From Anodontia alba (taxonomy: Eukaryota; Mollusca; Bivalvia; Lucinida; Lucinidae): 64,000 nt of DNA. Both the position numbers and the translations under genes were made by a program. The stretch spans positions 35,383,687 through 35,447,686 of the forward strand of contig OZ024823.1 of NCBI GenBank assembly GCA_964016985.1, in the 5' to 3' direction. Each line of letters starts with the position of its first letter. Position 1 is the stretch's first letter. The notes beneath the pieces are model-generated. The model was not told where the DNA came from, made no database searches, and saw only the letters and a program-made list of their open reading frames with translations. Below are positions 1-57,644 of this stretch, in pieces.

Positions 1-539
1 GAGAATCATGAATGAAATTCCTTCTACACAATTGGTTCTAAAAATAGATACACCATTACTATACACTAAACCTTTGGAATGATGCTGGTATTACAGTGCA
101 CACAACTCTTTATCATTCAGGTCAATTTATGTACATGTACCTATAACTCCAAGATCATGAGAAAAATTGCACTTTAATCTGGGATTCCTGGATAAGAAAA
201 CCAGCTTGCATTCACATAGATACTTTTGTCACAAACTACTAATTCACTAAAACTAAACAAATAATAAAACAGTACAATAGTCCTGAGCCTGCTAAAGTTT
301 GATGTCCACTGACAGTGACATTTTAGACACTTTTTTCAAACCTACAACAGGAAAACTAACTGCTAGGTCTTTATTGAATTATCTTTCTTTATAATCATCA
401 ATGTGGAAAAAAAATAAATAAATAAAATAATAATAATCATAAACAACAAAACAAATTAACCTAACAGGCTCGTGGCATAACGAATAATCGGTGACAGATA
501 GACCACAAAGTGATCACATTAAAATTCAGGTCCACAACA
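1..539 (-). mobile_element. 3' LTR of element A (partial, cut by window edge)
   Basis: Bases 1-539 repeat 14496-15034 with three substitutions and no length change that I can see. In element (minus-strand) sense this is the first 539 bases of the 3' LTR, beginning TGTTGTGGACC at base 539. The rest lies to the left of the window. A purine-rich tract directly precedes it. The near identity of the two LTRs indicates a recent insertion. Confidence 0.92.
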
Positions 540-553
540 ATGCACCCTTTTCC
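540..553 (-). other. polypurine tract of element A
   Basis: In element sense the bases just before the 3' LTR read GGAAAAGGGTGCAT, then TGTTGTGG begins. A short purine run abutting the 3' LTR is the expected plus-strand priming site of an LTR retrotransposon. The call rests on position and composition. Confidence 0.55.
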
Positions 554-3243
554 AAAAGAAAAAATGTATAGGGAATGCATTTTTTCTGATTTCGTCCCCG
601 AAATCCATATTCTTAATTTCAAATTTAATCATTAAATTCCTGTGATCATTTTGAATTTACATCAACAATGTTCAGTTAAAATATTTACATCAGTATGTTG
701 GCTGGCACATATGGACTAAAATACTCTTTTGGCATATGCTTATGAATTTTTTCCCCTTGTATATGATTGTCAAAATATCAGTTAACTAACAGCTACCTTG
801 ATACCACTGAATCAGCTAGGGAATAAATGTGCAAAACAAAATGACTAGGTTTGCTGTTAAAAATCACAACATTAACTGGCAAACAAGCAAGTAAAACAAA
901 GAGAAAACTCTTGAGTATGTATTTGTCACATTCTGTGCCAACCAGAAATGGTTAAACATCAATAAACTCCTTTTAAGTATGCAATCCTACCCAAACCTAC
1001 ACGGCATGCCATATATAGGTACTTACTATCAGGCCAAACCTTACAAATAAAATATCCACCAAATGCTTCATTTGAAACCTAGTCCATAAATGTATATATA
1101 TATTTTTTTAATTTGTTTTGTTTTGTAGTTTAAATGAATTTGAAGCAACAGACTAAATGCTTCTCAAGAGTAAAAGGACTAGGGCATAGTTGAACATTTA
1201 TAGGTATTCAAAATAGTGAATCTTTCTTTTGAAATAAGATAATTTTCAGAATATTCAAAGCAGATGAAGATTTATGCATGACACGTATTTTGGCTATATG
1301 CACAACTACTATTACATAAACATAAACATTTACTAAAATCTCTGTGATATGCAATATATATGCACGGCTACGCCATCAGCATAATACAAGATAGGCTCAT
1401 GTATGTTTTTGAACACAATGTGGTTGAGTGTTTGTCATTAACAATTTAACAAAATTGTCAACAACAACAAACACTTAGCTTCAATATAACCAGGGAATAA
1501 TCAGGCCTATATTACTCCCTAATCTTTGTTATGGCCAAATGCAATGGACTTAAGTCTGGTAACTTCTTGTAAGTCATTCTATTACTTATTCACCGTGCCC
1601 ATAACTTACAGTAATTATAGGATTGATTTGCAGCTGGCATAACATACACCATTTGCAAACATTGTAATAGTAAAAATAATAATACTAAAACAAAAAATAT
1701 ATGTAAGAAAAATAATGTGGATTACAAGAAAAGATATACAAATATTTACACACTTCTGCACCTTGTGTAAGGAGAAATGATGCTCTTAAAATGAATACTA
1801 ATAGGTCCTGAATGCTTTAATTGCTCAACATCTAGCTTGCTAAGTGACAACATCACAACCAATGGAAACTTTAAAGTCGGAATGAATCACTGACTTTACA
1901 AAAATACTGCACAGAGGCAATGACTGTGGTAGACCATCTTGAAAACCAAACATGTAGATATCGAAACTCTGGAAATGCAATAAAGCACATTGCTCCATAT
2001 ATACAATGGCAATGAAACACAAATCTCCACAGTCTTATAATTAGACAAACATTGTTACAATGTAAACACCACAGTCATGCCTCTACACAAACATTTATGG
2101 AATGACTTTAAGCTATCAAAACAGTGGAATGATTATAGATTCATCAATAGCTTTTTTTTTTTTTTTTTTTTTTTAAACTCATGAAAACATGCTACCCATG
2201 TCACTTCAAAATAATTTGAGAGGCACGCCCGCCGTGTCTTGCTGCAGCAGATTTAATTAGATGTAAAAACGAAATAGAGAAATCTCCAGGGCGCCAAGTC
2301 ATCTATAGGAATCGGGCTGGAAGCAGGACCCCAGGGCTAGGTAAGGATCATTTAAAAACAAACAAACAAACAAAAACAAAAAACCAACCACCCCAACCCA
2401 GGGTATAGGACCAAGATGGAAATGGAAGGACCAAACCAGGGGCCCCCAAAATATTCTCATTAGCAAAAATACCCAGGCATATATGCATAAACACAGCCAG
2501 CAAACCTCAAGTGTCTGCATATCATTTATTAAGGAAGTGACCAGATAACAAGATACCTCATACTATGAAGTACGTTTGATGCATGCATAAACCAGAGGCC
2601 AGAACGTTGAAATACTGCCATTTTCTGCTTAACGGACATCATCCGTTAACACACCGGCCAAAATAACAAATATGTATCTGCTACTATCCGGTAATAACAA
2701 CAGTTAACAAAACGTCATGGGAACCCTCCCTTAAACAGAACGAAATTGTTCACATGATGAAGTCAACAATAACAACGTATACATAACCCAGATGTATACA
2801 CACACAAAAAAATGCAAAAAAGATTGCCATTGAATACACATATGGCTCAAAATGTCCATCTACTACTAGAACGATACCGGTTTTTACCTTCCAAATTCCA
2901 GCAGAGATGCAAAAAGCCCTTGAAGTGTGCAAACGCCGAGGCCTACATCACCTCAACCAGTGTGCAAACGCCGAGGCTTACATCACCGGACATCTAGTGT
3001 GCAAACGCCGAGGCCTACAACACCAGAGGATAAAATGGCCTACGACCCCCACGCCAGACCAATAGCCACGCACGCACCAAAATTCCATGAAACAAAGTAT
3101 TCACATAAGAAACAAATTAAAACACTAATACTGAACCTCAAGAAAATTTACTAAAAATACAAATGTGAAGGAAAATGTGAGAGGTAGAGAAAAATACAAA
3201 CACCATGTTATATCTACCCGTATGGAATCATCAGAAAATTAAA
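554..3243 (-). other. 3' non-coding region of element A
   Basis: About 2.7 kb between the last accessory ORF and the polypurine tract. It is AT-rich with a poly-T run near 2153-2174 and short A-runs. I see no ORF with recognisable protein character. The only structure is a three-copy tandem repeat near 2924-3029. Such a long 3' region is unusual for a Ty3/gypsy element. Confidence 0.6.
2924..3029. repeat. three tandem copies of a ~36-bp GC-richer unit
   Basis: Units start at 2924, 2959 and 2996. Each begins AGTGTGCAAACGCCGAGG followed by CYTACAWCACC and then diverges. The block is GC-richer than its surroundings and sits inside the 3' region of element A. No coding role is apparent. Confidence 0.8.
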
Positions 3244-3600
3244 TTAACTATTTTTATGCCTTTTATTGTATTCAGAAATGGCATCCTGACTACACCGCTT
3301 CCAGATCTGCTGAGTGCGAGTGAGATGTCTGTTCGTTTCAGGAACAGACACAACACTGCGCATCCTTATAGGTGGATCTGGAAACAATGCAGCCTGAGAT
3401 CCACTTGGCTGGTTATCACGCCAGGCCTGCTCAAATCCGGACAAGGCAGAAACATGAGGTACACCGGATTCTGGGGTCAAAAGCTCACCAGACAGACAGT
3501 CATTAATCCTCAAAAGCTCATCATTCTGTTTCTTCAGCTGTCGATTCTCCTCCCTAAGCTCTCTCAACTGCTGTGACTCATCATCATAATCGATGATGAA
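3244..3600 (-). CDS. coiled-coil ORF downstream of pol (element A accessory ORF)
   Basis: An open frame ending at 3244 encodes an N-terminal acidic stretch (IIDYDDES) and then a clear leucine/glutamate/lysine heptad segment (QLRELREENRQLKKQ), followed by a polar tail rich in Ser, Pro and Arg. The frame has no ATG of its own before the coiled coil and is shifted relative to the zinc-finger ORF it overlaps at 3564-3600. It is therefore either read by frameshift or splicing from that ORF, or is part of one protein broken by an indel. It is in element sense and lies between pol and the 3' LTR, where envelope or other accessory genes sit in related elements, but it shows no signal peptide or membrane segment. 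Function unknown. Confidence 0.5.
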   Translation of the reverse strand, partial: FIIDYDDESQQLRELREENRQLKKQNDELLRINDCLSGELLTPESGVPHVSALSGFEQAWRDNQPSGSQAALFPDPPIRMRSVVSVPETNRHLTRTQQIWKRCSQDAISEYNKRHKNS

Positions 3601-3953
3601 TCCAGCAGAAAAGAGTTGGAAGAACCAGCAACAGAAGAAACTCTTTCTTCACCAATCTCGGGTTCAGTGGAGACAGCAGCAGCCTGATCAGTTGGGTAAT
3701 GCTCCCTCTCCGTCTGTGTTGCTTTGCGCATCATCAGTTTCCTTGGAATGACCTCCTCATTCTCATGAACTGGGCCATGGCATCCGGTTCGATGCTGATG
3801 CCGCCTTATTCCTGCAGCTTTAACTGCAACAAATCCGCAGTTACATTGGAAAGGAGCTGCCTCCTGGGTGTGTTGTTTATACAGATGAACGTACACCGAC
3901 TCGAAGAAGCCAAGGAAGTTACATAGAAGACATAAATAAATTGACTTCCCCAT
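3564..3953 (-). CDS. small zinc-finger ORF downstream of pol (element A accessory ORF)
   Basis: The 129-codon ORF begins with ATG at 3953. Near its N-terminus are two zinc-binding patterns: a C2H2-like finger with spacing C-x2-C-x11-H-x4-H (CLLC...HLYKQH), and a second CNC...HQHRTGC cluster. A Ser/Glu-rich tail follows. It lies about 200 bases downstream of the pol stop on the same strand. Its last codons overlap the coiled-coil frame (3244-3600), which suggests a two-part protein joined by frameshift. Zinc fingers plus a coiled coil point to nucleic-acid binding and oligomerisation (inference). I do not recognise the family. It is not the Gag CCHC knuckle, which is present separately in gag. 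Confidence 0.55.
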   Translation of the reverse strand: MGKSIYLCLLCNFLGFFESVYVHLYKQHTQEAAPFQCNCGFVAVKAAGIRRHQHRTGCHGPVHENEEVIPRKLMMRKATQTEREHYPTDQAAAVSTEPEIGEERVSSVAGSSNSFLLDSSSIMMMSHSS

Positions 3954-4158
3954 CCTGAAACGACAAATTCAGAAACATCGACTGAACAGCCCGGCTGGCA
4001 CCAAACACAAGACAGAGGTTTGGCTATAAATCCATGTTTTTTTGTTTTTTTTTAAATTAGCCTATATATATATATTTTTTTTTTTTTTTTTTTTTTTATA
4101 TATTTTAAGTGTCTGATTCTATGGGTGACTGGCATTAGTTTTACAGAAACAAGGAAAA

Positions 4159-7100
4159 TTATATTACAGTACTATTCTGCAAACGCTTCTGCAGTTTTAC
4201 AGCCCACTTTGGCAGTTTGTCGGACTCACACTTCTTCAGTCGATCATGATGTACCACCAGTATAACTCGTTTGCCTGTAATCTCGTACACCGAGGGACTG
4301 CAGCACGTTGTGACTACAAAAGGTCCAGAGTATCTCTCATCAAGTTTTTTACCCATGGCCACCCTTTTGTATACCACATCTCCCACCTTGTAAGTGTATT
4401 CAACAGTTCGACTATCATAATCCCGTTTCTGTCTCTCAGCAGCTGCTCGGAGATTTTTCCTGGCAATATGGTAACACTCTTCCATCCTGTCTCTGAGTTG
4501 GGTGACATATTCATGAACGTTACATGGCTCTTCAGCTCTTGGAAAAGGGTAAAGCAAATCTTTTGGCATATTCACCTCCCGACCAAACATAAGCATATTT
4601 GGACTGTAGCCTGTAGCTGGATGAGGAGTAGCCCTGTATGCTGCTAAAAGTAAACCTAAATATTGATCCCAGTTCTTACTATTATGTGTCACAACCTTTT
4701 TTATCATGTTGCCTAGTGTCTGATTGAACCTTTCAATAAGACCGTTCGAGCTTAGTCTATAAGCTGTTGTTCTTGTCTTCTTAACTTCCAGTAATCGGAG
4801 CACTTCCTTGAACAACTGACTTTCAAAGTTTCTGCCCTGGTCTGAGTGTATTTCCAAAGGCGTACCAAATCTGGAAATGAATTCATGGACAAGTTTCTGT
4901 GCCACAATTTCAGCATGCTGGCTGGGTAAACTATACGCCTCCATCCAACGGGTGAAATAGTCTCCTATTACAAGGATAAATTTATTCTGGTCTTTTGTTA
5001 ACGGTAATGGACCCATTACATCTATACCTATTCGGTCCAAAGGATAGCCCACCACATAGTTTCTTAACTTGGCTCTTGGCTTTTTGCACAGAGTTTTGGT
5101 TCTGTTACACTTGTCACACTTCTTGATGTACAATTTCGTGTCACTTCTCATTTGATACCAATAAAATTTCTGTTGCATTTTCTGGTAAGTCTTATTAATG
5201 CCAAAGTGCCCTGTAACCAGTGTATCATGATGATTCCTAATCACCTCATTCCTTAAGACTTTTGGAACGAGTAGTTGTAAACTTTCTTGCTTTGCTGGAC
5301 AGAACTCCCATCTTCTCTGATAGAGTATACCATTTTTTCGGACAATATTTTCTGAGTTGAGCCAGTATTTTCTTACAGCTGGACTATGAGCCGCAGCTTC
5401 ATCCCTGCTGGGCTGACAGCTTTTATCCATCCAGTCATGCAAAATGCCCAAATCAGCGTCTTCTCTCTGAAGTAGTTGAATTTCTTCAAAAGTATATATT
5501 GGCAGAAACATAGATTCCGGACTAAAACTTCCTCCTTCAGAATTCTCTTGGTTTGGTTGAGAGATTTGATTTCCATCTTGAACAAGCGACTTAGCCTTGG
5601 CCCTGGTAAAGGCTCGAAGACATACCTCCTCCTGTTCTGATATTTCTTTTATCCTAGAAGCATGTACATTGGATCCTAGATCAGTAACATCGTCAACCTC
5701 ATCATAAAACTCTTGCCAGTCATCTTCACAATCCAAACATACCTGGTTTTCTTGGGAATCATATGGTACATGACCGCATTGGTCCTGTTCAAAATCTTTC
5801 CTGGACAGACTATCAGCGTTTTTATGCCTGGAACCCGGTCGGTGTTCTATATCAAAATCATACTGGGCAAGAAATTCTAGCCACCTGGCCACCTGACCTC
5901 TTGGATCCTTGAAATTGAACAGCCATCTCAGAGACCCATGGTCAGTCCTGAGAAGAAATTTCTGGCCCAAAAGATAGTGTCGGAAATGATTAACAAAAGT
6001 TATGACAGCAAGCAATTCCCTTCTCGTTACACTGTATCTTTCTTGTTGGGAACTAAGTCGTTTTGATGCATAGGCTATAACTCGCTCTTTTCCATCTTGT
6101 ACTTGGGATAACACCCCTCCAATTCCAACATCTGAAGCATCTGTGTCTAATAGATATTTCAGTCCAGGTTTTGGATATGCAAGTATAGGGGCAGAACATA
6201 GCTTCTCTTTGAGCTCTTCAAATGCTTTCTGACAGGAACCATCCCACTGAAATTTGACATTCTTCTTAAACAGCCTTGTCATTGGTGCAGCTATATGACT
6301 AAAGTTGGCTATATACTGGCGATAATATGAACACAGCCCTAAAAAACTTTGAATTTCCTTGATACTGCCAGGCTCCTTCCATGTCTTAACAGCCTCCACA
6401 GTCTTGGGATTGGGACTTATTCCTTCTACATTCACAATGTGTCCAAGAAAAAGGACCTGAGTTTTAAATAATTCACATTTTGAAGGTTTTATTTTCAACC
6501 CTGCTTCAGAAAGACGCTTCAGTACTTCTTCCAGTCTCCCAAGATGTTCATCAAAATTTGACGAAATAACAATTATGTCGTCCAAGTACACCAAAAGTAT
6601 GTCCCACTGTAATCCACGAAAGATGAGTTCCATGCAGCGCTGAAACGTACTAGGAGCATTGCAGAGTCCGAAAGGCATAATAGTGTATTCGAACAAGCCA
6701 TACTTTGTTATAAATGCTGTCTTATGTCTGTCCTCTTCAGCCAGCTCAAGTTGCATATATGCACTTTGCAGATCAATCGTCGAATAGATCTTTGCAGATG
6801 AAAGACAATCTAAGCACGCATCTATTCTTGGAAGTGGGTATGCATCTTTAATTGTACGTTCGTTTAGTTTCCTATAATCTATACATACACGAACATCTCC
6901 TGTCTTCTTACGTACCATTACGATAGGGGAAGCCCAGGCTGAGCTTGATGGCTGTATGGCTCCAGCTTTCAGCTGTTCATTCAAGTACTTTTCCTCCTCT
7001 CCTTCAAAACCTTGAGGTGTTCTTCGTAATGGCTGGCGCACAGGTGCAGCTTCAGCAGTGGCTATATGATGTTTTAAAACAGAACATTTCCCTAATTCGG

Positions 7101-8391
7101 ACTTTGTCTTAGCAAAAGTTTCTTGATACCTTAACAATAAATTTGCTAATTGACACCTTTGTTTTTCATCCAGTTTTTCAATACTTTGTGTATATAACAT
7201 GTGTAAATGTGTTGGAACCCTTTGCAATTGCTCTTCCACTCCAAAATCTGCTAATTCTGAACCAGTGAGTTCAGTCTGAACTTCTGAAGAGTGTATAAAA
7301 TTGTTTTCATCTGGCTCTGATGCTTTTGCTTTCTGATGACTACAGATATCTTCCAGCTCACCTTTTTTATGCTGAAGTTTGCTGTTCTTGAGTCTACAAA
7401 TGGAGATGCCCTCTTCGTGCCGTACTATATCTTGGACTTTTACAGTTGTCATAACACTTCCAACAGCCTGGAGGTTACCCAGTATCATTCCTTTTTTTAA
7501 TTTTACTGGTGATACACTAGAGTTTATCATCTTCACTGGTATTTTGTTTGACTTCAGTTTTATTACGCTCCTAGCAATAAGCAGCTGTTTCTTTGCTTCT
7601 TCAGAGGCCTCAAAAATATAAGTCTGGTCTTCATACTTCTCTTCGGTATAACATACCCCGCTCATTATGAATTCTGATGAAGCAGGCACAGTAACGGCTC
7701 TTGATACTTTCACTTTTCCACTGCTTTCTTGAACTCGAATTACCTCACAATCAACCCAGGAATCTTTTATCTGTATACCACGCTTGGTGCTGACAGTAAT
7801 ATCCATGGCATCAATAACATCACAGCCTAACAGAATTTCGTCTCTTATTGGAGCGACATAAACAGGCCAAGTAAAGTTGTATTCACCTATCTTAAACTCA
7901 ACATCAGTGATGCCACAAGTTTTCATTTCACGACCAGCTTCAGCAACAACTAAACCCCGCTTTGCCATCTTCAACTTTGGTTTTACATTCTCGGGAAATG
8001 AATCATAAAGTTGCTTACTTAATACTGTCACTTCAGCCCCAGTATCTACGATAGCTTTAGTTGGAAGTCCCTGCACAGATAATGGTGTTTTGATAGTGAC
8101 AGCTCTTACCCGTTCTATTATAATTTGCAAATCCTCACATTTTTTCATGTTATTCTGGTTTAACATACCGGGTATATATATATTCTCAACTGTAGCAGGA
8201 GAAATATTCTCTGCAAGTCCTAACTCTTGTCCTTTAAAGCTTACATGAGGTAGTGGTTTGGCCATTTCATCGACATTAATTGAAGACTTGCTTAACACTG
8301 GGCCTAAGTCCTGGCCAGCGGACTCGGCCCCGTCACGTTTTCCGACTGTTTTTCTTTTGGTGAAACCTTTTGCGTAGCAGGTTTTCTGTTC
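4159..8391 (-). CDS. pol: pol polyprotein of Ty3/gypsy element A (PR-RT-RNaseH-IN)
   Basis: About 1410 codons, uninterrupted. Domains in order, with residue numbers from GTG at 8298: aspartic protease with VDTGAEV at about 84-90 and LLGCDVI further on; reverse transcriptase with YLDD near 570; RNase H with TDASD near 720; a His/Cys zinc domain (HH...CDKC) near 1040-1080; and an integrase core with all three acidic residues (GIDVMG, HSDQG, IERF). This order is that of Ty3/gypsy. The frame lies -1 relative to gag and is open from 8391, overlapping the end of gag by about 85 bases. It is probably made as a Gag-Pol fusion by -1 frameshifting, though I see no canonical slippery heptamer. Next to the integrase Glu, the usual HPQ triplet reads RLS. 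No chromodomain is visible. Confidence 0.95.
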   Translation of the reverse strand, partial: EQKTCYAKGFTKRKTVGKRDGAESAGQDLGPVLSKSSINVDEMAKPLPHVSFKGQELGLAENISPATVENIYIPGMLNQNNMKKCEDLQIIIERVRAVTIKTPLSVQGLPTKAIVDTGAEVTVLSKQLYDSFPENVKPKLKMAKRGLVVAEAGREMKTCGITDVEFKIGEYNFTWPVYVAPIRDEILLGCDVIDAMDITVSTKRGIQIKDSWVDCEVIRVQESSGKVKVSRAVTVPASSEFIMSGVCYTEEKYEDQTYIFEASEEAKKQLLIARSVIKLKSNKIPVKMINSSVSPVKLKKGMILGNLQAVGSVMTTVKVQDIVRHEEGISICRLKNSKLQHKKGELEDICSHQKAKASEPDENNFIHSSEVQTELTGSELADFGVEEQLQRVPTHLHMLYTQSIEKLDEKQRCQLANLLLRYQETFAKTKSELGKCSVLKHHIATAEAAPVRQPLRRTPQGFEGEEEKYLNEQLKAGAIQPSSSAWASPIVMVRKKTGDVRVCIDYRKLNERTIKDAYPLPRIDACLDCLSSAKIYSTIDLQSAYMQLELAEEDRHKTAFITKYGLFEYTIMPFGLCNAPSTFQRCMELIFRGLQWDILLVYLDDIIVISSNFDEHLGRLEEVLKRLSEAGLKIKPSKCELFKTQVLFLGHIVNVEGISPNPKTVEAVKTWKEPGSIKEIQSFLGLCSYYRQYIANFSHIAAPMTRLFKKNVKFQWDGSCQKAFEELKEKLCSAPILAYPKPGLKYLLDTDASDVGIGGVLSQVQDGKERVIAYASKRLSSQQERYSVTRRELLAVITFVNHFRHYLLGQKFLLRTDHGSLRWLFNFKDPRGQVARWLEFLAQYDFDIEHRPGSRHKNADSLSRKDFEQDQCGHVPYDSQENQVCLDCEDDWQEFYDEVDDVTDLGSNVHASRIKEISEQEEVCLRAFTRAKAKSLVQDGNQISQPNQENSEGGSFSPESMFLPIYTFEEIQLLQREDADLGILHDWMDKSCQPSRDEAAAHSPAVRKYWLNSENIVRKNGILYQRRWEFCPAKQESLQLLVPKVLRNEVIRNHHDTLVTGHFGINKTYQKMQQKFYWYQMRSDTKLYIKKCDKCNRTKTLCKKPRAKLRNYVVGYPLDRIGIDVMGPLPLTKDQNKFILVIGDYFTRWMEAYSLPSQHAEIVAQKLVHEFISRFGTPLEIHSDQGRNFESQLFKEVLRLLEVKKTRTTAYRLSSNGLIERFNQTLGNMIKKVVTHNSKNWDQYLGLLLAAYRATPHPATGYSPNMLMFGREVNMPKDLLYPFPRAEEPCNVHEYVTQLRDRMEECYHIARKNLRAAAERQKRDYDSRTVEYTYKVGDVVYKRVAMGKKLDERYSGPFVVTTCCSPSVYEITGKRVILVVHHDRLKKCESDKLPKWAVKLQKRLQNSTVI

Positions 8392-10028
8392 TTATGCCTA
8401 AGTGGACATCGAGGCGCAATATGACCTGCTTGTAAACAGAAGTAACAAATTATATTTTCTTCTTGCCGTTTTGGCATCAGTTCTTCTTCACTTTTATCTT
8501 TACTGTCCAGATCGTCCATGCTTGCCTTCCCATTTCTGAAAAGCTTTTCAATGGTTGCCTTTAGATCCCTACCAAACTGGATCAGACGTTCTTCAGTCAC
8601 AAATTTCTTACCATTTATACGTCTTACTTCAGATTCATTGGTATCGTTAATATCGGGTAAACATGTTAATTGCTCCTTAGCATAAGAGCTTAGTTGCCTT
8701 AGTCCAGATTTCTTTCGTGTTGTCTCCTTGCAACACTCATGCCATGTTATCATGTCTACAGCATCTGTGAGACTCCTTGGTTTCTTTATGAGGACTTCAT
8801 AAGCAATGGTTTGATCAGGCAATCCCTGAAGAAGATGGTGTATAGTCATTTGTGTAAAGGTCTCTGTAGAGCCTATGTCCGGGTAAGCCTTGGCCATCAA
8901 TGTTCGGACTCTTGAAGCGTATTCTTGAATTGTCTCTTTGGAATTCTTTTTAATATTATTTAAGCTCGCTCGTACAGTTTCAGCTGGTGTTCTGTGAGTA
9001 AACCTATCCCGCAAAGCTTGGACAAACAAATCAATATCTCCTCTTGTCTCTGGTCCCAGACCAGCTGCAAAACTCATAGCATCATCTTTTAAACAGAGCA
9101 ACAACTGCTCCCTTTGTTTCTCAGCAGACCAATGGTATCTTCTAGCCAACAATTCAAACTTGAGCCAGAAAGCATCCCATTCATCATGCTTTCCAGAAAA
9201 AGATGGAAAATAGGGCCTTGGTTCATTAAGAAATTGTTCTGGAAAACTTAGCTCTGGCCGCGGTATTCCATAAAATACAGGTCCTAGGGACTCATTGTAG
9301 CTTCGAGGTGGAGGCAGAAGTCTGCTGTAATCGAACTCTCTTTGTGGCATGCGATCTCTGTCCCTGTAACCATGATCCTTTGGGGTTGGTTGAGTTGTCC
9401 TTGTTGCTGATTGCTGATCCCTTGATGACGAGTTAGCCCTTGGAACCTTCTTTGACTGGCCATGCGGTTCACCAAGAGTAAAACCAGTATATTGTCTAAA
9501 ATCAGACCTGTCTATGTTTCTATTGTGGATATTTTCTCGTGGTCTCACTGGGGTCTCACCCCTAAGAGAAACATGATCCTGCCTCAGATAGTCTCTCAGT
9601 GAAGGTTCAAAGTCAGTCGTTGTTCCGAAATGTACTCTAGGTGGTAAACTCCATCTAGGTAATGGAACAGGTTCTCCAGGCATGGAGCGACCATGCGAAG
9701 CATCCTTGCCAGTCTCAAGCAAATCAATTGGTAGAGTATCCTCTGAGTCATCCCTTGAATGCAGTGTCCACCTTGCCCCAGGTGAAGTGTCTCTCTCCAT
9801 CATACCATCAGGAGAATGACTACGTTGCAAAGGTGATGAAGTACCTCTTGGTCTATCTTCCTCAAATAACTGTAAAGGCACAGTCTCATCCTCCAACAGA
9901 TCACCATAGGGAACATGGCCTGTTGACTGGTCAGTGTGTAAAGTCTCTCCATCACCAATTCCTTCTCCTTCACCGTGTTCTTCATTTGCTGTTGAGCGTT
10001 CCGGAAGCGTTCTAGACCGTAAATCCAT
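8304..10028 (-). CDS. gag: gag of Ty3/gypsy element A
   Basis: 574 codons. I chose the ATG at 10028 because the longer reading starts only with TTG. The N-terminal ~240 residues are charged and low-complexity. A retrotransposon capsid-type region follows from about 245 to 420 (SFSGKHDEWDAFWLKFE and an IQEYASRVR helix). A single CCHC zinc knuckle with spacing C-x2-C-x4-H-x4-C (CYFC...GHIAPRC) lies near 527-540, followed by a Lys-rich tail. Gag forms the virus-like particle and binds genomic RNA. It lies just 5' of pol on the same strand, and both are intact, so the copy may be competent or only recently inactive. Confidence 0.93.
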   Translation of the reverse strand: MDLRSRTLPERSTANEEHGEGEGIGDGETLHTDQSTGHVPYGDLLEDETVPLQLFEEDRPRGTSSPLQRSHSPDGMMERDTSPGARWTLHSRDDSEDTLPIDLLETGKDASHGRSMPGEPVPLPRWSLPPRVHFGTTTDFEPSLRDYLRQDHVSLRGETPVRPRENIHNRNIDRSDFRQYTGFTLGEPHGQSKKVPRANSSSRDQQSATRTTQPTPKDHGYRDRDRMPQREFDYSRLLPPPRSYNESLGPVFYGIPRPELSFPEQFLNEPRPYFPSFSGKHDEWDAFWLKFELLARRYHWSAEKQREQLLLCLKDDAMSFAAGLGPETRGDIDLFVQALRDRFTHRTPAETVRASLNNIKKNSKETIQEYASRVRTLMAKAYPDIGSTETFTQMTIHHLLQGLPDQTIAYEVLIKKPRSLTDAVDMITWHECCKETTRKKSGLRQLSSYAKEQLTCLPDINDTNESEVRRINGKKFVTEERLIQFGRDLKATIEKLFRNGKASMDDLDSKDKSEEELMPKRQEENIICYFCLQAGHIAPRCPLRHKNRKPATQKVSPKEKQSENVTGPSPLART

Positions 10029-10175
10029 AACCGTCAAGTTACAGATGGTTCGAAAATTTGGAAAGTTTCACTTTTTTTTTTTATGCAAAGGGAGATAATT
10101 CAATAGTGGCCACCAGATAAATGGCAATTATAGTCAACCACTCCACTCAGTTGAATTTCACTGAAAAGAACTCAG

Positions 10176-10234
10176 CAGCAAGAGATCTGACTACCACAAG
10201 TCTGAGACTACCAACAAGTCTCGAATCAATGCTG
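10176..10234 (-). ncRNA. two-hairpin module A1 (UGUYGGU loop)
   Basis: Outer stem CAGCA 10176-10180 with TGCTG 10230-10234. Hairpin 1 is GACT/AGTC (10189-10202) with the 6-base loop ACCACA. Hairpin 2 is GAGACT/AGTCTC (10204-10222) with the 7-base loop ACCAACA (UGUUGGU in element RNA). Part of the leader of element A. Confidence 0.65.
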
Positions 10235-10296
10235 TGAATCCTTGCAGGCAACTGCCAGTGGTATGAACATAAATCTACTTGTTAAGAGAACACTAA

Positions 10297-10349
10297 CACT
10301 GATCTGATCACCGACAGATCTTGGACTACCAACAAGCCCTGAATCAGTG
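10297..10349 (-). ncRNA. two-hairpin module A2 (UGUYGGU loop)
   Basis: Outer stem CACTGAT 10297-10303 with ATCAGTG 10343-10349. Hairpin 1 is GATC/GATC with loop ACCGACA (10306-10320). Hairpin 2 is GGACT/AGCCC with loop ACCAACA (10323-10339). The one imperfect pair (A10325 with C10337) is a U.G wobble only in the minus-strand RNA. Confidence 0.7.
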
Positions 10350-10433
10350 CAATCTTGCTCCCTTAAAAAGAGATAAGCCTCAAAAGCTTCCTCAACACAA
10401 TTTTGAATTAATTAAATTATGCTATGATGATTC

Positions 10434-10496
10434 CACAGCAACTGATTTGACTACCACAAGTCCGAGGCTACCAACAAGCCTTGAACCAATGCTGTG
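10434..10496 (-). ncRNA. two-hairpin module B1 (UGUYGGU loop)
   Basis: Outer stem CACAGCA 10434-10440 with TGCTGTG 10490-10496. Hairpin 1 is GACT/AGTC with loop ACCACA (10449-10462). Hairpin 2 is AGGCT/AGCCT with loop ACCAACA (10465-10481). It is the duplicate of A1. Hairpin 2 changes from GAGACT to AGGCT-type pairing while staying paired. Confidence 0.7.
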
Positions 10497-10554
10497 AATC
10501 TCAGTAAGCAATTACTAATGTGGATTTAAAATCAACTCTTCAAGGAAACATCAA

Positions 10555-10607
10555 TACTGATCTGATCACCAACAGATCTTGGACTACCAACAAGTCCTGA
10601 ATCAGCA
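10555..10607 (-). ncRNA. two-hairpin module B2 (UGUYGGU loop)
   Basis: Outer stem TACTGAT 10555-10561 with ATCAGCA 10601-10607. Its single non-canonical pair (A10556 with C10606) is U.G in minus-strand RNA. Hairpin 1 is GATC/GATC with loop ACCAACA (10564-10578). Hairpin 2 is GGACT/AGTCC with loop ACCAACA (10581-10597). It is the duplicate of A2. Confidence 0.72.
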
Positions 10608-11152
10608 CAAACTTGCTTCCCTAAAGAGGAGTAAACACATATTTTTTTTTTTTTTTCTAAATTTTAAACAACTGTTTGTTATGAATGTGAAATGCTAGAA
10701 ATGCCCATCCAGTTACCACAAGCCTCAACAAGCATTCAAGCACCACACATCTGTTGTCAAATGTCACACAGGTGCAGATGTGACAAAATGTTGCCCCTCT
10801 CAAATGATTGTGTCCACTGTACTGTACAGGTTTTGTCTGCACTTCGTATGTTAAAAGCCAAAATTACGAAGTTACTGCAAAACAATGAACACAAAGTCAG
10901 AGGCAACGATCAGAAGATTACAATCCAGCATCGCAACTGATACACAGCGATACCAAACCAAAATCCTCTAACCGATTCTGCAGACCTAACTGAGAATTAA
11001 TTTGAAAGATAGAAGATAGAGGGTGGGGACTGACATCAATTAAGCTAATTAAATAAACAATTTTATACAATTAATTCACAATTAATTTTTTTTTTTTAAC
11101 CAAATTTCCCCAAAACTGCAGAAACCTATAAAAATACCCATATAATACAGCT

Positions 11153-11413
11153 TTACCATCTGTATTGCAAAACAGCAGCCTCCTCATCAAGTCCTAAAAT
11201 TTTGGCTTCAAGGTCACACTTTTCTCTTAGAAGTTTATCTATTTTATCCTCTTGCTCTTTTATCAGCAAGTCAACCTTCTCTGCAAACAGTTTGAAGGTG
11301 GCTGCATAATTATCTTCTTGGATTTGAAAATGTTTAATTAAATTTCGTCGTTCTTCTTCTAACTGCTTCAAAGTCTCTTTTAATTGCGAAATTTCTTCTT
11401 TTAATGTACTCAT
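11153..11413 (-). CDS. small coiled-coil ORF in the element A leader
   Basis: 86 codons from ATG at 11413 to a stop at 11153, in element sense, starting about 140 bases downstream of the primer-binding site and 1.1 kb upstream of gag. The product is almost wholly a charged coiled coil. It begins MSTLKEEISQLKETLKQLEE, continues with further heptads through residue ~75, and has no Cys/His cluster, signal peptide or membrane segment. It would be the first ORF met by ribosomes on the genomic RNA. It could be a real accessory protein, a regulatory upstream ORF, or captured host sequence. The well-formed heptads argue against chance. Function unknown. Confidence 0.55.
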   Translation of the reverse strand: MSTLKEEISQLKETLKQLEEERRNLIKHFQIQEDNYAATFKLFAEKVDLLIKEQEDKIDKLLREKCDLEAKILGLDEEAAVLQYRW

Positions 11414-11554
11414 AATTGACTGTCTGTCACAATATTTATTCTTTACACAGAGAACATGAAATCTGATACTTTCACTATGGAAAAAACTTAAATAAATCTG
11501 TAGTTGTTTTTTTTTTTTTTTTTTTTTTTTATTTATTTATTTTTTGAAAACCAA

Positions 11555-11572
11555 ATCCCACTTCTGACACCA
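11555..11572 (-). other. primer-binding site (tRNA-Leu type) of element A
   Basis: Read on the minus strand the 18 bases are TGGTGTCAGAAGTGGGAT. This is complementary to the 3' end of animal tRNA-Leu including CCA, as I know it. It begins six bases after the 3' end of the 5' LTR. It fixes the LTR boundary and the direction of transcription. Confidence 0.88.
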
Positions 11573-12156
11573 AGTTTTTGTTGCGTGAAATGAGGTAACT
11601 TGACGGATTTACTAAACAAAGTTTGTCAGGATGACACCACCAGATTGTCGTTTGCAAATATTCAGTGAGGCTACCCAATCTGGAAAGTAGACTTCACAAA
11701 AACAAAACTAAACTCAACAGGAATTCCTTTAAAACAAAGACTGTTTTAAATTGTAACTTTTTATCTAAAACTATGCTTTACAAATGGTTACAATAAGCAT
11801 GCAAAGATAATGAAAAGAAAACAAAACAAAAATGACACATAAGAGAAATACAAGTGGCTAACTTAACCAATGCCAGTCTTTGCCAGTAAACTAAACAGAA
11901 AGTCTGGGCAAAATTAAAATTTGGCACTAAGGGGTCTACGCTAAAAGGCACTAAAACTTAAACAACATGCAGGATTCAGAGCCAAACTAATGGTAAAAGG
12001 AAGGGGTGAAAAGTTAGAAAGATAGTCTGGAACTGTTTTGCTTTATTTATCTTGAACACACTCCAGAGCACTTCGAATATTCAAGAACTCCCTATTTGTT
12101 TGACGATCAATAAAAATTTAAAGAGAGAAAAAAAAAGGCAAATTTAGGAAACTGTC

Positions 12157-12254
12157 TGATCATTCAGTAGACTCAAGCCAGGGTGCAACCGACATGCACT
12201 TTGGAGTGAAACCAACATTCACGCCTCATAATCCCAGTGAGAGGACTGAATGAT
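12157..12254 (-). ncRNA. two-hairpin module C1 (UGUYGGU loop)
   Basis: Outer stem GATCATTCAGT 12157-12167 with ACTGAATGATC 12244-12254, 11 perfect pairs. Hairpin 1 is GTGCA/TGCAC with loop ACCGACA (12182-12198). Hairpin 2 is GTGAA/TTCAC with loop ACCAACA (12205-12221). It is in the 3' third of the 5' LTR. Confidence 0.8.
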
Positions 12255-12356
12255 CTGTAAATATCAAAGAATTTTCTACACTTTCCGAAAGTCACAGAAA
12301 ATTGAACTTCTGGGGGAAATGCTAAAAAATAGGGAAACAAACAAAAAAAAATGTCT

Positions 12357-12454
12357 AATTATTCAGTAAACTCAAGCCAGGGTGCAACCGACATGCACTT
12401 TGGAGTGAAACCAACATTCACGCCTCATAATCCCAGTGAGAAAACTGAATAATT
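12357..12454 (-). ncRNA. two-hairpin module C2 (UGUYGGU loop)
   Basis: Outer stem AATTATTCAGT 12357-12367 with ACTGAATAATT 12444-12454. Compared with C1 two outer-stem positions change on both strands, so pairing is kept. The hairpins have the same sequence as in C1, 200 bases further on. Confidence 0.8.
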
Positions 12455-12703
12455 GTGTTTCGTTATTCTCTTTTTTCTTATTAATCAAAAATGGGATGCA
12501 GATAAACTGTGACCTGGAATGCAGCTCTGTCAAGAGAAATAAGAAATTTGCTGTCCTTAAATGCTTGATCTCTGACAAAATAAGATTTTACCCATACTGA
12601 GGAAAGAGAAAGGAAAAATAAGAATAAAATTCTCAGCTGTTAATAATTTATAGCAAACTGACAAAACTGAAATTTCAAACATTAGTCTCTTACATTTTTG
12701 GGG

Positions 12704-12800
12704 ATTGTTCAGTAAATTCATTCATGTAGTGCAACCAACATGCACTATGGAGTGAAACCAACATTCACGCCTCAGTCTCTGGCTGAACAAACTGAACAAT
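12704..12800 (-). ncRNA. two-hairpin module C3 (UGUYGGU loop)
   Basis: Outer stem ATTGTTCAGT 12704-12713 with ACTGAACAAT 12791-12800, with a third compensatory change relative to C2. Hairpin 1 extends to 7 bp (TAGTGCA/TGCACTA) around loop ACCAACA (12727-12747). Hairpin 2 is GTGAA/TTCAC with loop ACCAACA (12752-12768). Confidence 0.8.
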
Positions 12801-13021
12801 TTTATAACCCCTCTAAAAGATGTGATGCTAATAGTTTCCTCAAGTATAGGCTACAAATTTTGTGCATCATCAATACTATATAAAATCCCAAGCAATTGTT
12901 TTAGTATACCCCTTTATATACTTAACTAGAAATAAACAACAATAATAATAAAATCCGAGCTGTTCATGAACAGATTCTACAATATCAGAATATTTCACAA
13001 CTGAATACAACACTTTAGCCT

Positions 13022-13117
13022 ACTGTTCAGTAAATTCAAATCCAGGTGCAACCAACATGCACTTTGGAGTGAAACCAACATTCACGCCTCATATTCCGGC
13101 TGAACAAACTGAACAAT
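13022..13117 (-). ncRNA. two-hairpin module C4 (UGUYGGU loop)
   Basis: Outer stem ACTGTTCAGT 13022-13031 with ACTGAACAAT 13108-13117. The one imperfect pair (C13023 with A13116) is G.U in minus-strand RNA. Hairpins GTGCA/TGCAC (13046-13062) and GTGAA/TTCAC (13069-13085) both have loop ACCAACA. Confidence 0.8.
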
Positions 13118-13161
13118 ATTTAATGTCTGTTCAAAATATCAGTCAACCTATATATTAACTC

Positions 13162-13250
13162 GACACAGTATGCACACAAGGCTTTCCATGAAACCAACAT
13201 TCACAGTGCTTCACAACATTCACATGTCAAGTGAAACAACAAGCAGTGTC
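13162..13250 (-). ncRNA. degenerate fifth LTR module
   Basis: One hairpin TGAA/TTCA with loop ACCAACA at 13189-13203 lies within a weak GACAC/GTGTC outer pair (13162-13166 with 13246-13250). The partner hairpin is not recognisable. It is probably a decayed copy. Confidence 0.35.
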
Positions 13251-15034
13251 CATACATGCATGTACTTTTCAAATACTACAAAATAATTAAGTAAATATTT
13301 TCCCAAAATAGTTCTAAGATATTTTCTAATGTATTTATACAAGAATTCAGCTCAGTATTAATTTTATAAAATTATTTAAAATTAATTTAGCTTATTAAAT
13401 TCCAGAATAAGTAAATATCTTACTTTGATTCCAATTTCCAAAGCCAAAAATAAAAATTAATTAAAAATTATATCAGAATGAAGAGCTGTAGTTTTAGTGG
13501 TAACAGTTAGGAAGCTGGGAGCAGAATGGCAAAAACTGGCAATGAATCTGTATATAAAGAGCAGAAATTCCTAAGCAATCACATGACATTGGTCATTTTA
13601 CAAATAAGGGAATTGCATAAGACTTTAGACCAGTCCATTTTTCAGAGGTGTGTTATCCTCACTGTCACTGACAAGTCTTGAAGTTAAAAACGTTTACTTA
13701 TATTAAAAATATCGAGAATAGTTTCCAATGGCTGGACTACGCAATTACCCAATCAAGTAAAAAGACATTTATTTCCTTCTGCATTAAATATTTACTGCTC
13801 TGAAACTCTGTGCAACCCTTTGTTTTTAATTAATATTAATCAGCCCACTAAATTTAAAACATTACCAACAGTCTATTAATAACATAGAAAATGAAATATT
13901 TATTAACTGTCTAGTAGAAAGACATTGCAAACCAGCACCATATTTGCATTTTACTATTTAAAAATTAAGTTTTCTACCTAGCTAACAATGCAGTAGCAGC
14001 TCATAAAATCAAATTTTCCCATGCACTATTTTTTCCTTAAATCTGAGAAACCTGGAGATTCCTACACTTAGCTCATTAATATTCATAAGCTGTCTGTTAA
14101 TTTTGGGATGTTGCCATTTTTTTGGAATTATTTTGCTAAATATTTTGGAATTAAGGTATTAGCCTTCATAATTTCAGTTTGTATATTAATTGTTTCACTA
14201 CATCTGAATCTGTTATAAAAGTTTTGCAACAGCCAGTTTCTTGAAAAACTTTATTTGTTCTCAAAGTTCCCAGATAGAAAGGAATCTGGGTCAATTTATA
14301 GCCTATAAATAGATTCTGCTAATGTAAAAACAAATCTTATAATTTGTCAAAAAACAGTATATACTGCATGAAATCACTTAAAATAGATCTTTAATTTCCA
14401 ATTTTCAATCAGTTCAGCACTCAAACACTTATGAAAAAATTCAGAAAATCAATATATTGATTTTGCTATCCTAAAGTCAAGGTCAGGTCAGTGCAGAGAA
14501 TCATGAATGAAATTCCTTCTACACAATTGGTTCTAAAAATAGATACACCATTACTATACACTAAACCTTTGGAATGATGCTGGTATTACAGTGCACACAA
14601 CTCTTTATCATTCAGGTCAATTTATGTACATGTACCTATAACTCCAAGATCATGAGAAAAATTGCACTTTAATCTGGGATTCCTGGATAAGAAAACCAGC
14701 TTGCATTCACATAGATACTTTTGTCACAAACTACTAATTCACTAATACTAAACAAATAATAAAACAGTACAATAGTCCTGAGCCTGCTAAAGTTTGATGT
14801 CCACTGACAGTGACATTTTAGACACTTTTTTCAAACCTACAACAGGAAAACTAACTGCTAGGTCTTTATTGAATTATCTTTCTTTATAATCATCAATGTG
14901 GAAAAAAAAAAAATAAATAAAATAATAATAATCATAAACAACAAAACAAATTAACCTAACAGGCTCGTGGCATAACGAATAATCGGTGACAGATAGACCA
15001 CAAAATGATCACATTAAAATTCAGGTCCACAACA

Positions 15035-16440
15035 GTGTGTTGTTTTCGTTTTGCTAAAGTGTCCTGATTGTATTTTGCTTAGCGTCTTGTTACCTCATTT
15101 GCATACCAATTTTCATATGGGATGGCCATCATGCCCATACATGTATATGGTAAAAACAAACTTAAATATCCTTCTCCAGAACCAAGAAAGTTTTGAGGCT
15201 GAATCTTAGTATACAGCATCGAGAACTCAACATCTACCAAGTTTGTTCAAATAATGAACATAGGTTGATCTTTGATCTTTTTACTGCAAGGTCAAATTCG
15301 CGTCCCCAGTTACATTTGTATGGAGAAAATGTTGAAAAGTTATTTTTTTTCAAAATGTATGAAAGACTTATGGCTGAAACTTACAATGGATGGTTAGAGA
15401 AGTAAAACGTTGTGGCTACAATCAAAATTTTGTCTCCGGGGAGTTATCTGCCCTTGCCCCTGGGCTATATGCGTCTATAAAATCGAGTTATCTTTAGTCT
15501 TCTTCTCTGAAACTGCTCGACCAATTTTTACCAGATTGCTTTTGGGGCCTTCTGTCAAAGGGGTATTTGACGGCAATTTGTTCAAACAGTTCTGCCCCAT
15601 TCAGCAAGATGGCTGTAATGCCCATATATGGTAAAATGTCTTCTTCTCTGAAATCGTTTGGCCAGTTTTCACTAGATTTCGTATGGTGCCTTATGTCGAA
15701 GGGGCATTGACTGTTTGTTCAAATGGTTCCGCACCTTTGAACAAGATGGCCACCATGCCCATATATGGTAAAATACTTAAAAATCTTCTTCTCCAGAACC
15801 AAGAAAGCTTTGAGGTTTAATCTTGGTAGATGGCATTGGGGACTTAACGTCTACCAAGTTTGTTCATATGATGATTCTAGTATGATCTTTGACCTTTCAC
15901 CGCAAGATAAGATTTGCGTCCCTATACATTTTTATGGGGAAAATGTGGTAAAATAATTTTCTAAAAATGTATTAAAGACTAATGGATGAAACTTACAATG
16001 TACGATTAAAGTAGTAAAACTGTTTAGTTACAATCAAAGGTTTGTCCCCCGGGGGTAATCTGGCCTGGCCCCAGAGTTTTATACATGTTTAAAATTGTGT
16101 AATCTTTAGTCTTCTTCTCTGAAATCGCTTGACTAATTTTCATCAGATTGCTTAGAGGCGTATTGACGGCAATTTGTTCAAACAGTTCTGCGCCATTCAA
16201 CAAGATGGCTATTATGCCCATATATGGTAAAAGAAACACTTAAAAGCTTCTTCTCCAAAACCAAGATAGCTTTTTGGCTGAATCTTCGTATACAGCATCA
16301 GGGACTGAAGGTCTACCAAGTTTGTTCAAAGGATGATCATAGGATGACCTTTGACCTTTTTATGACTGTCAAATTTGTGTCCTAGCTGCTGTGGAATATT
16401 GCAATGCATCCGCAGATATGTTGTAATGGCTGTTTTACTC
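15035..16440. repeat. diverged tandem repeat block
   Basis: Two interleaved motifs recur. One begins near 15175, 15790 and 16250 (ccaagaaagYtttgaggct... ctaccaagtttgttca). The other begins near 15495, 15640 and 16110 (cttcttctctgaaa...). Each unit ends with a copy of gcccatatatggtaaaa. Short ORFs here are stop-to-stop chance frames. I see no exon. Confidence 0.65.
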
Positions 16441-56689: not shown

Positions 56690-56909
56690 TATGAAAAAAA
56701 TCAGAAGAACAGTTACTTTTTTATGTCATATTATTTTTTTTATCTTGCTTTGTATTAGGATTAGGCATTTTTTTTAAATGAAAAGTGTTTATATTTTTCT
56801 TATTTCTCTACTAAAATATATGTTGTGAGTACTCATTAGCAGCCTCACACAAGGGTGCTTCCTATGAGTACCACAATATGTGTTTTCTTGGAGAACTTAG
56901 AAAAATATT

Positions 56910-57475
56910 TACAGGATACTCCTCTTATCTGACAGGATACTCCTCTTATCTGACAGTATACCCTCCTTATCTGACAGGATACCTCTCTTATCTGACAGGA
57001 TACCCCTCTTATCTGACAGGATACTCCTCTTATCTGACAGGATACCCTCTTATCTGACAGAATACTCCTCTTGACAGGATACTCCTCTTATATGAAAGGA
57101 TATCCCTCTTATCTGACAGAATACTCCTCTTGACAGGATACTCCTCTTATATGAAAGGATATCCCTCTTATCTGACAGGATACTCCTCTTATCTGACAAT
57201 ATACCCCTCTTATCTGACAGGATACCCCTCTTATCTGAAAGGATACTCCTCTTACCTGACAGGATACTCCTCTTATCTGACAGGATACTCCTCTTATCTG
57301 ACAGGATACCTCTCTTATCTGATAGGATACCCCTCTTATCTGACAGGATACTCCTCTTACCTGACAGGATACTCCTCTTATCTGACAGGATACCCGTCTT
57401 ATCTGACAGGATACCCCTCTTATCTGACAGGATACCCTTCTTATCTGCCAGAGTACCCTTCTTATCTGAAGCTCT
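56910..57475. repeat. 21-bp minisatellite, about 27 units
   Basis: The unit ggatactcctcttatctgac plus one base repeats with few changes. Because 21 is a multiple of 3, several frames stay open on both strands (Gly-Tyr-Ser-Ser-Tyr-Leu-Thr on plus, Ile-Leu-Ser-Asp-Lys-Arg-Gly on minus). These are repeat artefacts. It starts about 750 bases after the stop codon of the PR/SET gene. Confidence 0.95.
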
Positions 57476-57644
57476 GTAGTCATCTGGTACAATAGGTGAG
57501 TGAGGCCAATTTATATTTTGTCTCCTTTGTATCTTGTTCTTATTCCTACCCGAGTTAATAATTGTTTTCCAGAGGACAACATACCCTGTCCATTTCATCG
57601 CACCCTGCATAGCTCCAGGTAGGAGGAGAATCCACATACATGTA

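What the first reader, a model, noticed from the sequence alone, without database searches (positions are those of the whole stretch)
10176..13117. Array of eight two-hairpin RNA modules with a shared UGUYGGU loop in the leader and LTR of a giant Ty3/gypsy element
Seen directly: eight modules (10176-10234, 10297-10349, 10434-10496, 10555-10607, 12157-12254, 12357-12454, 12704-12800, 13022-13117), each an outer stem enclosing two short hairpins. Fourteen of the sixteen loops are exactly ACCRACA on the plus strand (UGUYGGU in element RNA); the other two are ACCACA. Stem sequences differ completely between leader and LTR modules (GATC, GGACT, GAGACT, AGGCT, GTGCA, GTGAA), yet the loop is constant. 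Inference: a protein- or RNA-binding array on the genomic RNA, for packaging or Gag recognition, translation or transport. I know of no described element of this form.
Basis: partly seen in the sequence, partly recalled or inferred. Interest (0 to 1): 0.93.

Follow-up and report, generated by a model that had tools for sequence, protein, structure and literature searches.

The report
Paired-hairpin recognition array in giant retrotransposon
An 18-kb jumping element carries eight RNA modules, each predicted to fold into a pair of hairpins with the same loop; two related subfamilies keep the paired design while their stems, and in one of them the loop itself, have changed, so the loops are likely tags by which the element's own proteins would recognise its RNA.

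Summary
In the element's leader plus LTR, 17 of 24 UGU-N(0-2)-GGU sites close a stem; 500 shuffles give a mean of 0.06 and a maximum of 2. A covariance model built only from the window's four LTR modules finds modules in sister subfamily B1 (reverse transcriptase 81-84% identical) at E down to 4e-9; on the joint alignment 19 of 25 pairs change on both sides and 96.4% of cells pair. One B1 copy has 12 such hairpins with 12 different apical stems. Subfamily B2 lacks these loops, but a search blind to loop sequence finds two paired-hairpin modules in its leader with loops AUUUAG/AUUUAG and ACUAAG/AGUUAG. I infer binding sites for an element-encoded protein, most likely for choosing its own genomic RNA. 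A small predicted-helical protein encoded upstream of gag (ORF0) follows the loop type better than the Gag zinc knuckle does, but only three subfamilies were compared and ORF0 lies next to the modules. The function is untested.

The parts
10176..10234 (-). leader module 1: outer stem, hairpins with loops UGUUGGU and UGUGGU
10297..10349 (-). leader module 2: loops UGUUGGU and UGUCGGU; one G-U pair in the first hairpin
10434..10496 (-). leader module 3: loops UGUUGGU and UGUGGU; A-U to G-C change on both sides relative to module 1
10555..10607 (-). leader module 4: loops UGUUGGU and UGUUGGU
12157..12254 (-). LTR module 5: 11-bp outer stem, hairpins GUGAA[UGUUGGU]UUCAC and GUGCA[UGUCGGU]UGCAC
12357..12454 (-). 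LTR module 6, a duplicate of module 5 with compensatory outer-stem changes
12704..12800 (-). LTR module 7
13022..13117 (-). LTR module 8
13186..13206 (-). extra single hairpin with loop UGUUGGU (7 pairs counting G-U), perhaps a decayed ninth module
   Evidence: (partial match, E 3.4)
11579..15034 (-). 5' LTR, 3,456 bp, holding modules 5-8
   Evidence: inner edge inferred
1..539 (-). start of the 3' LTR, cut by the window edge; a 99% module 6 copy lies outside the window at G000:C3:35381547
11555..11572 (-). primer-binding-site-like stretch beginning TGGTGTCAGAAGTGGGAT
   Evidence: tRNA not identified
11153..11413 (-). ORF0, 86-aa conserved, predicted helical protein encoded between primer site and gag; candidate reader of the loops (inference)
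8304..10028 (-). gag, with one CCHC zinc knuckle (seen by eye; no Pfam knuckle match)
4159..8298 (-). pol: protease, RT, RNase H, integrase
3564..3953 (-). 3' accessory ORF with C2H2-like pairs (by eye); second candidate reader

Best explanation
The element's sense RNA carries an array of paired-hairpin modules, four in the leader and four in the LTR, whose stems co-vary while the loop stays constant, and this array is likely a set of recognition tags that an element-encoded protein would read to pick out its own genomic RNA, most likely for packaging. Shown by the calls: the modules, their covariation, their recurrence with new stems in subfamily B1, and a two-module version with a different loop in subfamily B2. 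Inferred: each outer stem presents two loops side by side so that a dimeric or multimeric protein can bind both, and the repeats raise affinity and selectivity for the genomic RNA. Inferred: the loop switch in B2 reflects a change in the partner protein, which would keep closely related elements in one genome from recognising each other's RNA. Most likely partner: ORF0 or Gag, with ORF0 favoured because its sequence and C-terminal tail differ in B2 as the loop does.
For: Covariation: LTR alignment, 37 distinct rows, 19 of 25 pairs changed on both sides, 96.4% of cells paired, 0 of 500 shuffles reaching the score, slid controls at most 44.1% (two of the 75 matches are weak, E 0.06 and 0.64); leader alignment, 28 distinct rows, 13 of 16 pairs, 92.7% (three of the 44 matches are weak, E 0.26-0.95). 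A model from A-family LTR modules hits B1 modules at E 4e-9 to 4e-7 and nothing at E<=1 in B2 or more distant loci. The leader model hits B1 in 11 matches, E 1e-10 to 2e-3. Sense strand: G-U versus A-C cells 44:15 (A4), 4:0 (window leader), 1:1 (window LTR). Blind scan: similar-loop sibling hairpins seen in at least 6 windows number 7 in the window element (module 8 was not among them), 3 in B1 L050 and 2 in B2 L044; 80 shuffled sequences gave 5 in all and never more than 1 each. Loop switch with linked protein change: RT identity is even (A-B1 84%, A-B2 80-83%, B1-B2 80-86%), but ORF0 is A-B1 76-77%, A-B2 54%, B1-B2 49-51%, and B2 lacks the VLQYRW tail. Zinc knuckles, compared by eye, pair B1 with B2, not with A.
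Against: No binding, packaging or transcript data exist here. Where transcripts start is unknown, so LTR modules may not be in genomic RNA 5' ends. ORF0 and the leader modules are physically linked, so an exchange of the whole 5' region could make them co-vary without contact. Only three subfamilies were compared. The six B2 loci are close copies, so B2 is nearly one observation; in the blind scan L052 shows no pair and L048 one B2-type pair in 5 windows. No B2 LTR array was found. Some B1 hairpins have drifted loops (for example UGUUGUA). The modules are not exceptionally stable: 4 of 327 windows of 110 nt in the window's leader plus LTR reach z below -4, and only one of the four overlaps a module. 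With the four window modules alone, the number of both-side pairs is reached by 38 of 500 (LTR) and 32 of 500 (leader) shuffles and the number of pair types by more than half. Alignments A4 and A5 were fitted to the structure, which favours it.
Confidence: 0.5

Rival explanations
1. The array is a nuclear-export or expression element: ORF0 would work like a regulatory protein that coats unspliced RNA and gets it out of the nucleus.
For: A small accessory ORF sits beside the array. A precedent exists in an element with Gypsy/Ty3-type pol order: CERV of Cer1 is required for export of genomic RNA (PMC10309623, abstract and passages).
Against: CERV is made from a spliced mRNA and shares peptides with Gag; no splice evidence was sought here. 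No homology test between ORF0 and CERV was run.
Confidence: 0.2
2. The hairpins dock a host RNA-binding protein for translation, localisation or stability.
For: The leader modules end about 150 nt before the gag start; short unpaired loops on stems suit many host proteins (general knowledge).
Against: B2 lives in the same genome with a different loop, which one fixed host factor would not explain.
Confidence: 0.15
3. Loop-loop or loop-RNA pairing: the loops base-pair with each other, the element or a tRNA.
For: Ty3's proposed kissing-loop dimer (passage in PMC11381356) and GACG tetraloops in Harvey sarcoma virus dimers (title in a reference list). L050 has 3 matches to a loosened complement pattern in its 7 kb, and L044 has 13 to a six-base complement pattern of the B2 loops, which is uninformative.
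Against: No ACCRACA complement exists in the window element's sense strand; the loops are not self-complementary by inspection. tRNA pairing was not tested.
Confidence: 0.07
4. DNA-level palindromes (factor sites or recombination hot spots) that only look like RNA hairpins.
For: Modules duplicate, and copy L043 has five LTR modules.
Against: G-U pairs on one strand exceed A-C mismatches in the larger set; motif hairpins are on one strand only; covariation keeps pairing and not stem sequence.
Confidence: 0.05
5. A rival on the loop switch only, compatible with the others: B2 merely took its leader from another family, with no functional link to ORF0.
For: ORF0 and modules are neighbours, and ORF0 divergence disagrees with the even RT distances.
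Against: It does not explain why the paired design survives with a new shared loop. A and B2 leaders still align at the primer site, in ORF0 and over another 63-bp stretch.
Confidence: 0.3

Closest known systems
[quoted passage not shown]
   Same: A pair of hairpins in the 5' untranslated region; needed for efficient encapsidation in spleen necrosis virus. Only the titles were seen, in the reference list of PMC5086612; the papers are not held.
   Different: Here one outer stem encloses the two hairpins; loops are 6-8 nt UGU...GGU, not GACG; eight modules, half of them in the LTR; the loop differs between subfamilies. Further details of the retroviral motif are recalled, not seen.
Alphavirus packaging signal of 4-6 stem-loops with conserved GGG
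   Same: Several hairpins with one conserved loop motif that selects genomic RNA (passage in PMC8233893).
   Different: That signal is in a coding region of an unrelated virus, and the passage describes no twin arrangement.
Cer1 CERV nuclear-export protein
   Same: An accessory protein of an element with Gypsy/Ty3-type pol order that acts on its own genomic RNA (PMC10309623, abstract and passages).
   Different: CERV is spliced and shares peptides with Gag; the word stem-loop does not occur in the text.
Yeast Ty3 genomic RNA
   Same: Untranslated regions take part in packaging (passages in PMC11381356).
   Different: Its packaging sequences are described there as not precisely defined; no hairpin array appears in the passages read.
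Giant Gypsy elements with long LTRs or extra ORFs (Ogre, Burro)
   Same: Large size, long LTRs (Ogre 1.9-6.5 kb), extra ORFs (passages in PMC6431247).
   Different: No hairpin array in the passages read.

Membership tests
Ty3/gypsy LTR retrotransposon | LTRs, primer site, and pol order protease-RT-RNase H-integrase | tested here: met
Retroviral hairpin-pair packaging motif (GACG type) | two adjacent hairpins with the same loop in the 5' untranslated region | tested here: met
Retroviral hairpin-pair packaging motif (GACG type) | GACG tetraloops | tested here: not met
   loops are UGU...GGU or A-N-U-W-A-G
Retroviral hairpin-pair packaging motif (GACG type) | needed for RNA packaging | not testable with these tools
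   no functional data
Multi-hairpin packaging signal (alphavirus type) | several hairpins with varied stems and one constant loop motif | tested here: met
Multi-hairpin packaging signal (alphavirus type) | GGG at the base of the loop, inside a coding region | tested here: not met
   loops hold GGU; modules lie outside gag, pol, ORF0 and the 3' ORF
Multi-hairpin packaging signal (alphavirus type) | selects genomic RNA for particles | not testable with these tools
   no functional data
Rev/response-element or CERV-like export system | accessory protein that binds the structured RNA and drives export | not tested
   ORF0 is present but binding and export were not examined
Any RNA family of Rfam 15 | match to a covariance model | tested here: not met
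   window 1-15100 gave one sub-threshold match, in pol on the other strand

The most novel reading that the evidence does not exclude
A self-recognition code in a retrotransposon clade: each subfamily marks its RNA with repeated twin hairpins carrying a private loop, read by a co-evolving helical protein (ORF0) encoded in the same leader, so that close relatives in one genome do not package each other.
Probability: 0.22. Interest if true: 0.9.

Novelty: new variant of a known kind. Interest (0 to 1): 0.74.

Why it matters
How LTR retrotransposons choose their own RNA is poorly defined; for yeast Ty3 the packaging sequences are described as not precisely defined (passage in PMC11381356). Here comparative evidence marks candidate sites hairpin by hairpin and offers a natural loop difference (A/B1 versus B2) to test who reads them. 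The one mollusc survey whose passages I read limited LTRs to 1500 bp and the distance between them to 11 kb (PMC6238403), so elements of this size would likely not have been collected there.

Tried and rejected
Chance and low complexity: rejected. Antisense RNA: disfavoured. Kissing within the window element: no 7-nt complement found. Rfam: no family. A third loop type in the nearest outgroup (L056, CGGG-containing loops around 5690-5860): looks like a tandem repeat with one broken stem; kept as a lead only. Paired hairpins in five loci of the 57-59% families (L054-L058): 6 similar-loop pairs in all, each in 1-5 windows with unrelated loops; two host stretches gave one such pair each and the gag-pol slice none. 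An earlier, stricter module finder missed the B2 modules and found 6 of 8 in the window element. Viral contig search for the RT: nothing. Literature: ten searches were answered. The four aimed at retroelement leader hairpins or packaging loops in general returned 0, 1, 0 and 1 papers and no description of this array; I saw listings, and passages of seven papers (abstract of one). PMC5408684, on extra ORFs in rotifer elements, showed nothing like ORF0 upstream of gag in the passages read. The loop string UGUUGGU occurs in 212 papers, of which 15 were listed, none about retrotransposons by title.
Full report
What is there. The window holds most of a Ty3/gypsy element on the minus strand: 5' LTR 11579-15034 (3,456 bp; inner edge inferred from its TGTTG...CAACA ends), primer-site-like stretch 11555-11572, gag 8304-10028, pol 4159-8298 and the start of the 3' LTR at 539-1. 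The two LTRs overlap in 539 bp in the window and differ at 3 positions there, so the insertion is young. The whole is about 18.0 kb (14,495 bp between matching LTR points plus one LTR). The window is G000:C3:35383687-35447686 of a 1.86-Gb genome; the species was not identified.

Four modules lie in the leader and four in the LTR. Each has an outer stem around two hairpins. Fourteen loops read UGUYGGU and two UGUGGU on the element strand. Motif sites in leader plus LTR are hairpins in 17 of 24 cases; the antisense strand has no site; 500 shuffles reach at most 2 hairpins. The five other copies of this family whose upstream regions I fetched have 14 to 19 such hairpins each (L039-L043), and L043 has a fifth LTR module. 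A DNA search with module 6 gave 60 matches with 40 of 90 candidates scored, a lower bound.

Relatives. An RT search (110 matches from 108 scored of 6661 candidates) shows the window family A (97-100%), then copies at 80-84%, then families at 59% or less. A tree of 29 RT pieces groups A, B1 and B2 (100/99), with B1 and B2 as sisters (97/95). I fetched upstream regions of 20 copies: five of A, four of B1, six of B2, five of more distant families.

Subfamily B1 (L045, L046, L050, L053) has the same arrangement with other stems: 10 to 13 UGU-N(0-3)-GGU hairpins per locus out of 23 to 30 sites, in the leader and upstream of the primer site. L050 has 12 hairpins with 12 different apical 4-base stems and all four Watson-Crick closing pairs. 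Not every B1 hairpin keeps the loop: some have drifted. The model from the window's LTR modules finds one B1 LTR module in each of the four loci (E 4e-9 to 4e-7) and two weak ones (E 0.06, 0.64), and nothing at E<=1 in the B2 or more distant loci. The leader model finds 11 B1 matches (E 1e-10 to 2e-3); its three off-target matches have E 0.26 to 0.95.

Covariation. LTR alignment A4: 75 matches, 37 distinct, 19 of 25 pairs with changes on both sides, 96.4% of cells paired, no shuffle of 500 reaching it, slid controls 24-44%. Leader alignment A5: 44 matches, 28 distinct, 13 of 16 pairs, 92.7%. The weak matches named above were left in both. Within the window alone: 4 of 25 LTR pairs and 5 of 16 leader pairs change on both sides; there no shuffle of 500 reaches the covariation score, but the count of such pairs is reached by 38 and 32 of 500 and the number of pair types by more than half. 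A4 and A5 were aligned to the structure, which favours it; the B1 hairpins were also found without any model. G-U exceeds A-C on the element strand, 44 to 15 cells in A4 and 4 to 0 in the window's leader set; in the window's LTR set it is 1 to 1. Thermodynamic stability alone is unremarkable.

Subfamily B2 (L044, L047, L048, L049, L051, L052) has 0 hairpins at 67 motif sites. A scan blind to loop sequence, asking only for two sibling hairpins with similar loops, finds two such modules in L044, L047, L049 and L051, one of them in L048 (5 windows) and none in L052. Their loops are AUUUAG with AUUUAG, and ACUAAG with AGUUAG. On the element strand of L044 they lie at about 5470-5600, just after the primer site, and 6275-6400, before gag. 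In 40 shuffles of L044 strong pairs turned up twice, never two together. No B2 LTR array was seen. As A is sister to B1 plus B2, and A and B1 share the UGU...GGU loop, the simplest reading is a loop switch on the B2 line, or import of another leader.

Who reads the loops. The leader of A, B1 and B2, and of the nearest outgroup L056, encodes a small protein, ORF0. It has 24 relatives at E<=0.01 in the public protein set; I aligned 14 of them with the window's and found 24 invariant positions. No Pfam match reaches a cut-off. It is predicted as one long helix and a short one (mean pLDDT 87.7, tail low). RT identities among A, B1 and B2 are even (80-86%), yet ORF0 is 76-77% between A and B1 and 49-54% to B2, where the VLQYRW tail is missing. 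The zinc knuckle, compared by eye, groups B1 with B2 instead. This favours ORF0 over the knuckle as reader, with the caveats that there are three subfamilies and that ORF0 and modules are neighbours on the RNA.

How it likely works. Shown: conserved RNA pairing, constant loops in twin arrangement, repetition, and one loop difference between subfamilies. Inferred: protein binding to twin loops, and RNA selection for packaging. Export or host-factor docking are the main rivals. The closest precedents are the GACG-hairpin pair of type C retrovirus leaders, known here from titles only, and the alphavirus multi-hairpin signal. Loop sequence, outer stem, number, LTR location and loop switching differ. 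The text searches described under Tried and rejected found no report of this array.

Noticed in passing
window 11153-11413 (-): ORF0, a conserved 86-aa predicted helical protein encoded between primer site and gag; C-terminal VLQY(R/K)(W/F) in 13 of 15 aligned sequences; no Pfam family above cut-off.
   Followed up: partly
window 3564-3953 (-): 129-aa accessory ORF after pol with C2H2-like pairs; 32% identical over 114 aa to a B2 copy (L066), not found in the 0.9-kb B1 piece L065.
   Followed up: partly
window about 2924-3030: Three tandem copies of a roughly 35-37-nt unit in the element's 3' untranslated region (by eye).
   Followed up: no
L056, element strand 5690-5860: Outgroup element has tandem units with hairpins whose loops contain CGGG; possibly another loop type, but one stem is broken.
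   Followed up: partly
L044, about 5434-5460 on the element strand (also L047, L049, L051): In B2 the primer-site stretch itself can pair with the sequence just after it (10-bp, G-U-containing hairpin).
   Followed up: no
window 23464-60613, eight copies: 68-nt palindromic repeat, near-perfect in several copies, scattered outside the element.
   Followed up: no
window 56846-57529: Long 21-nt tandem repeat array.
   Followed up: no
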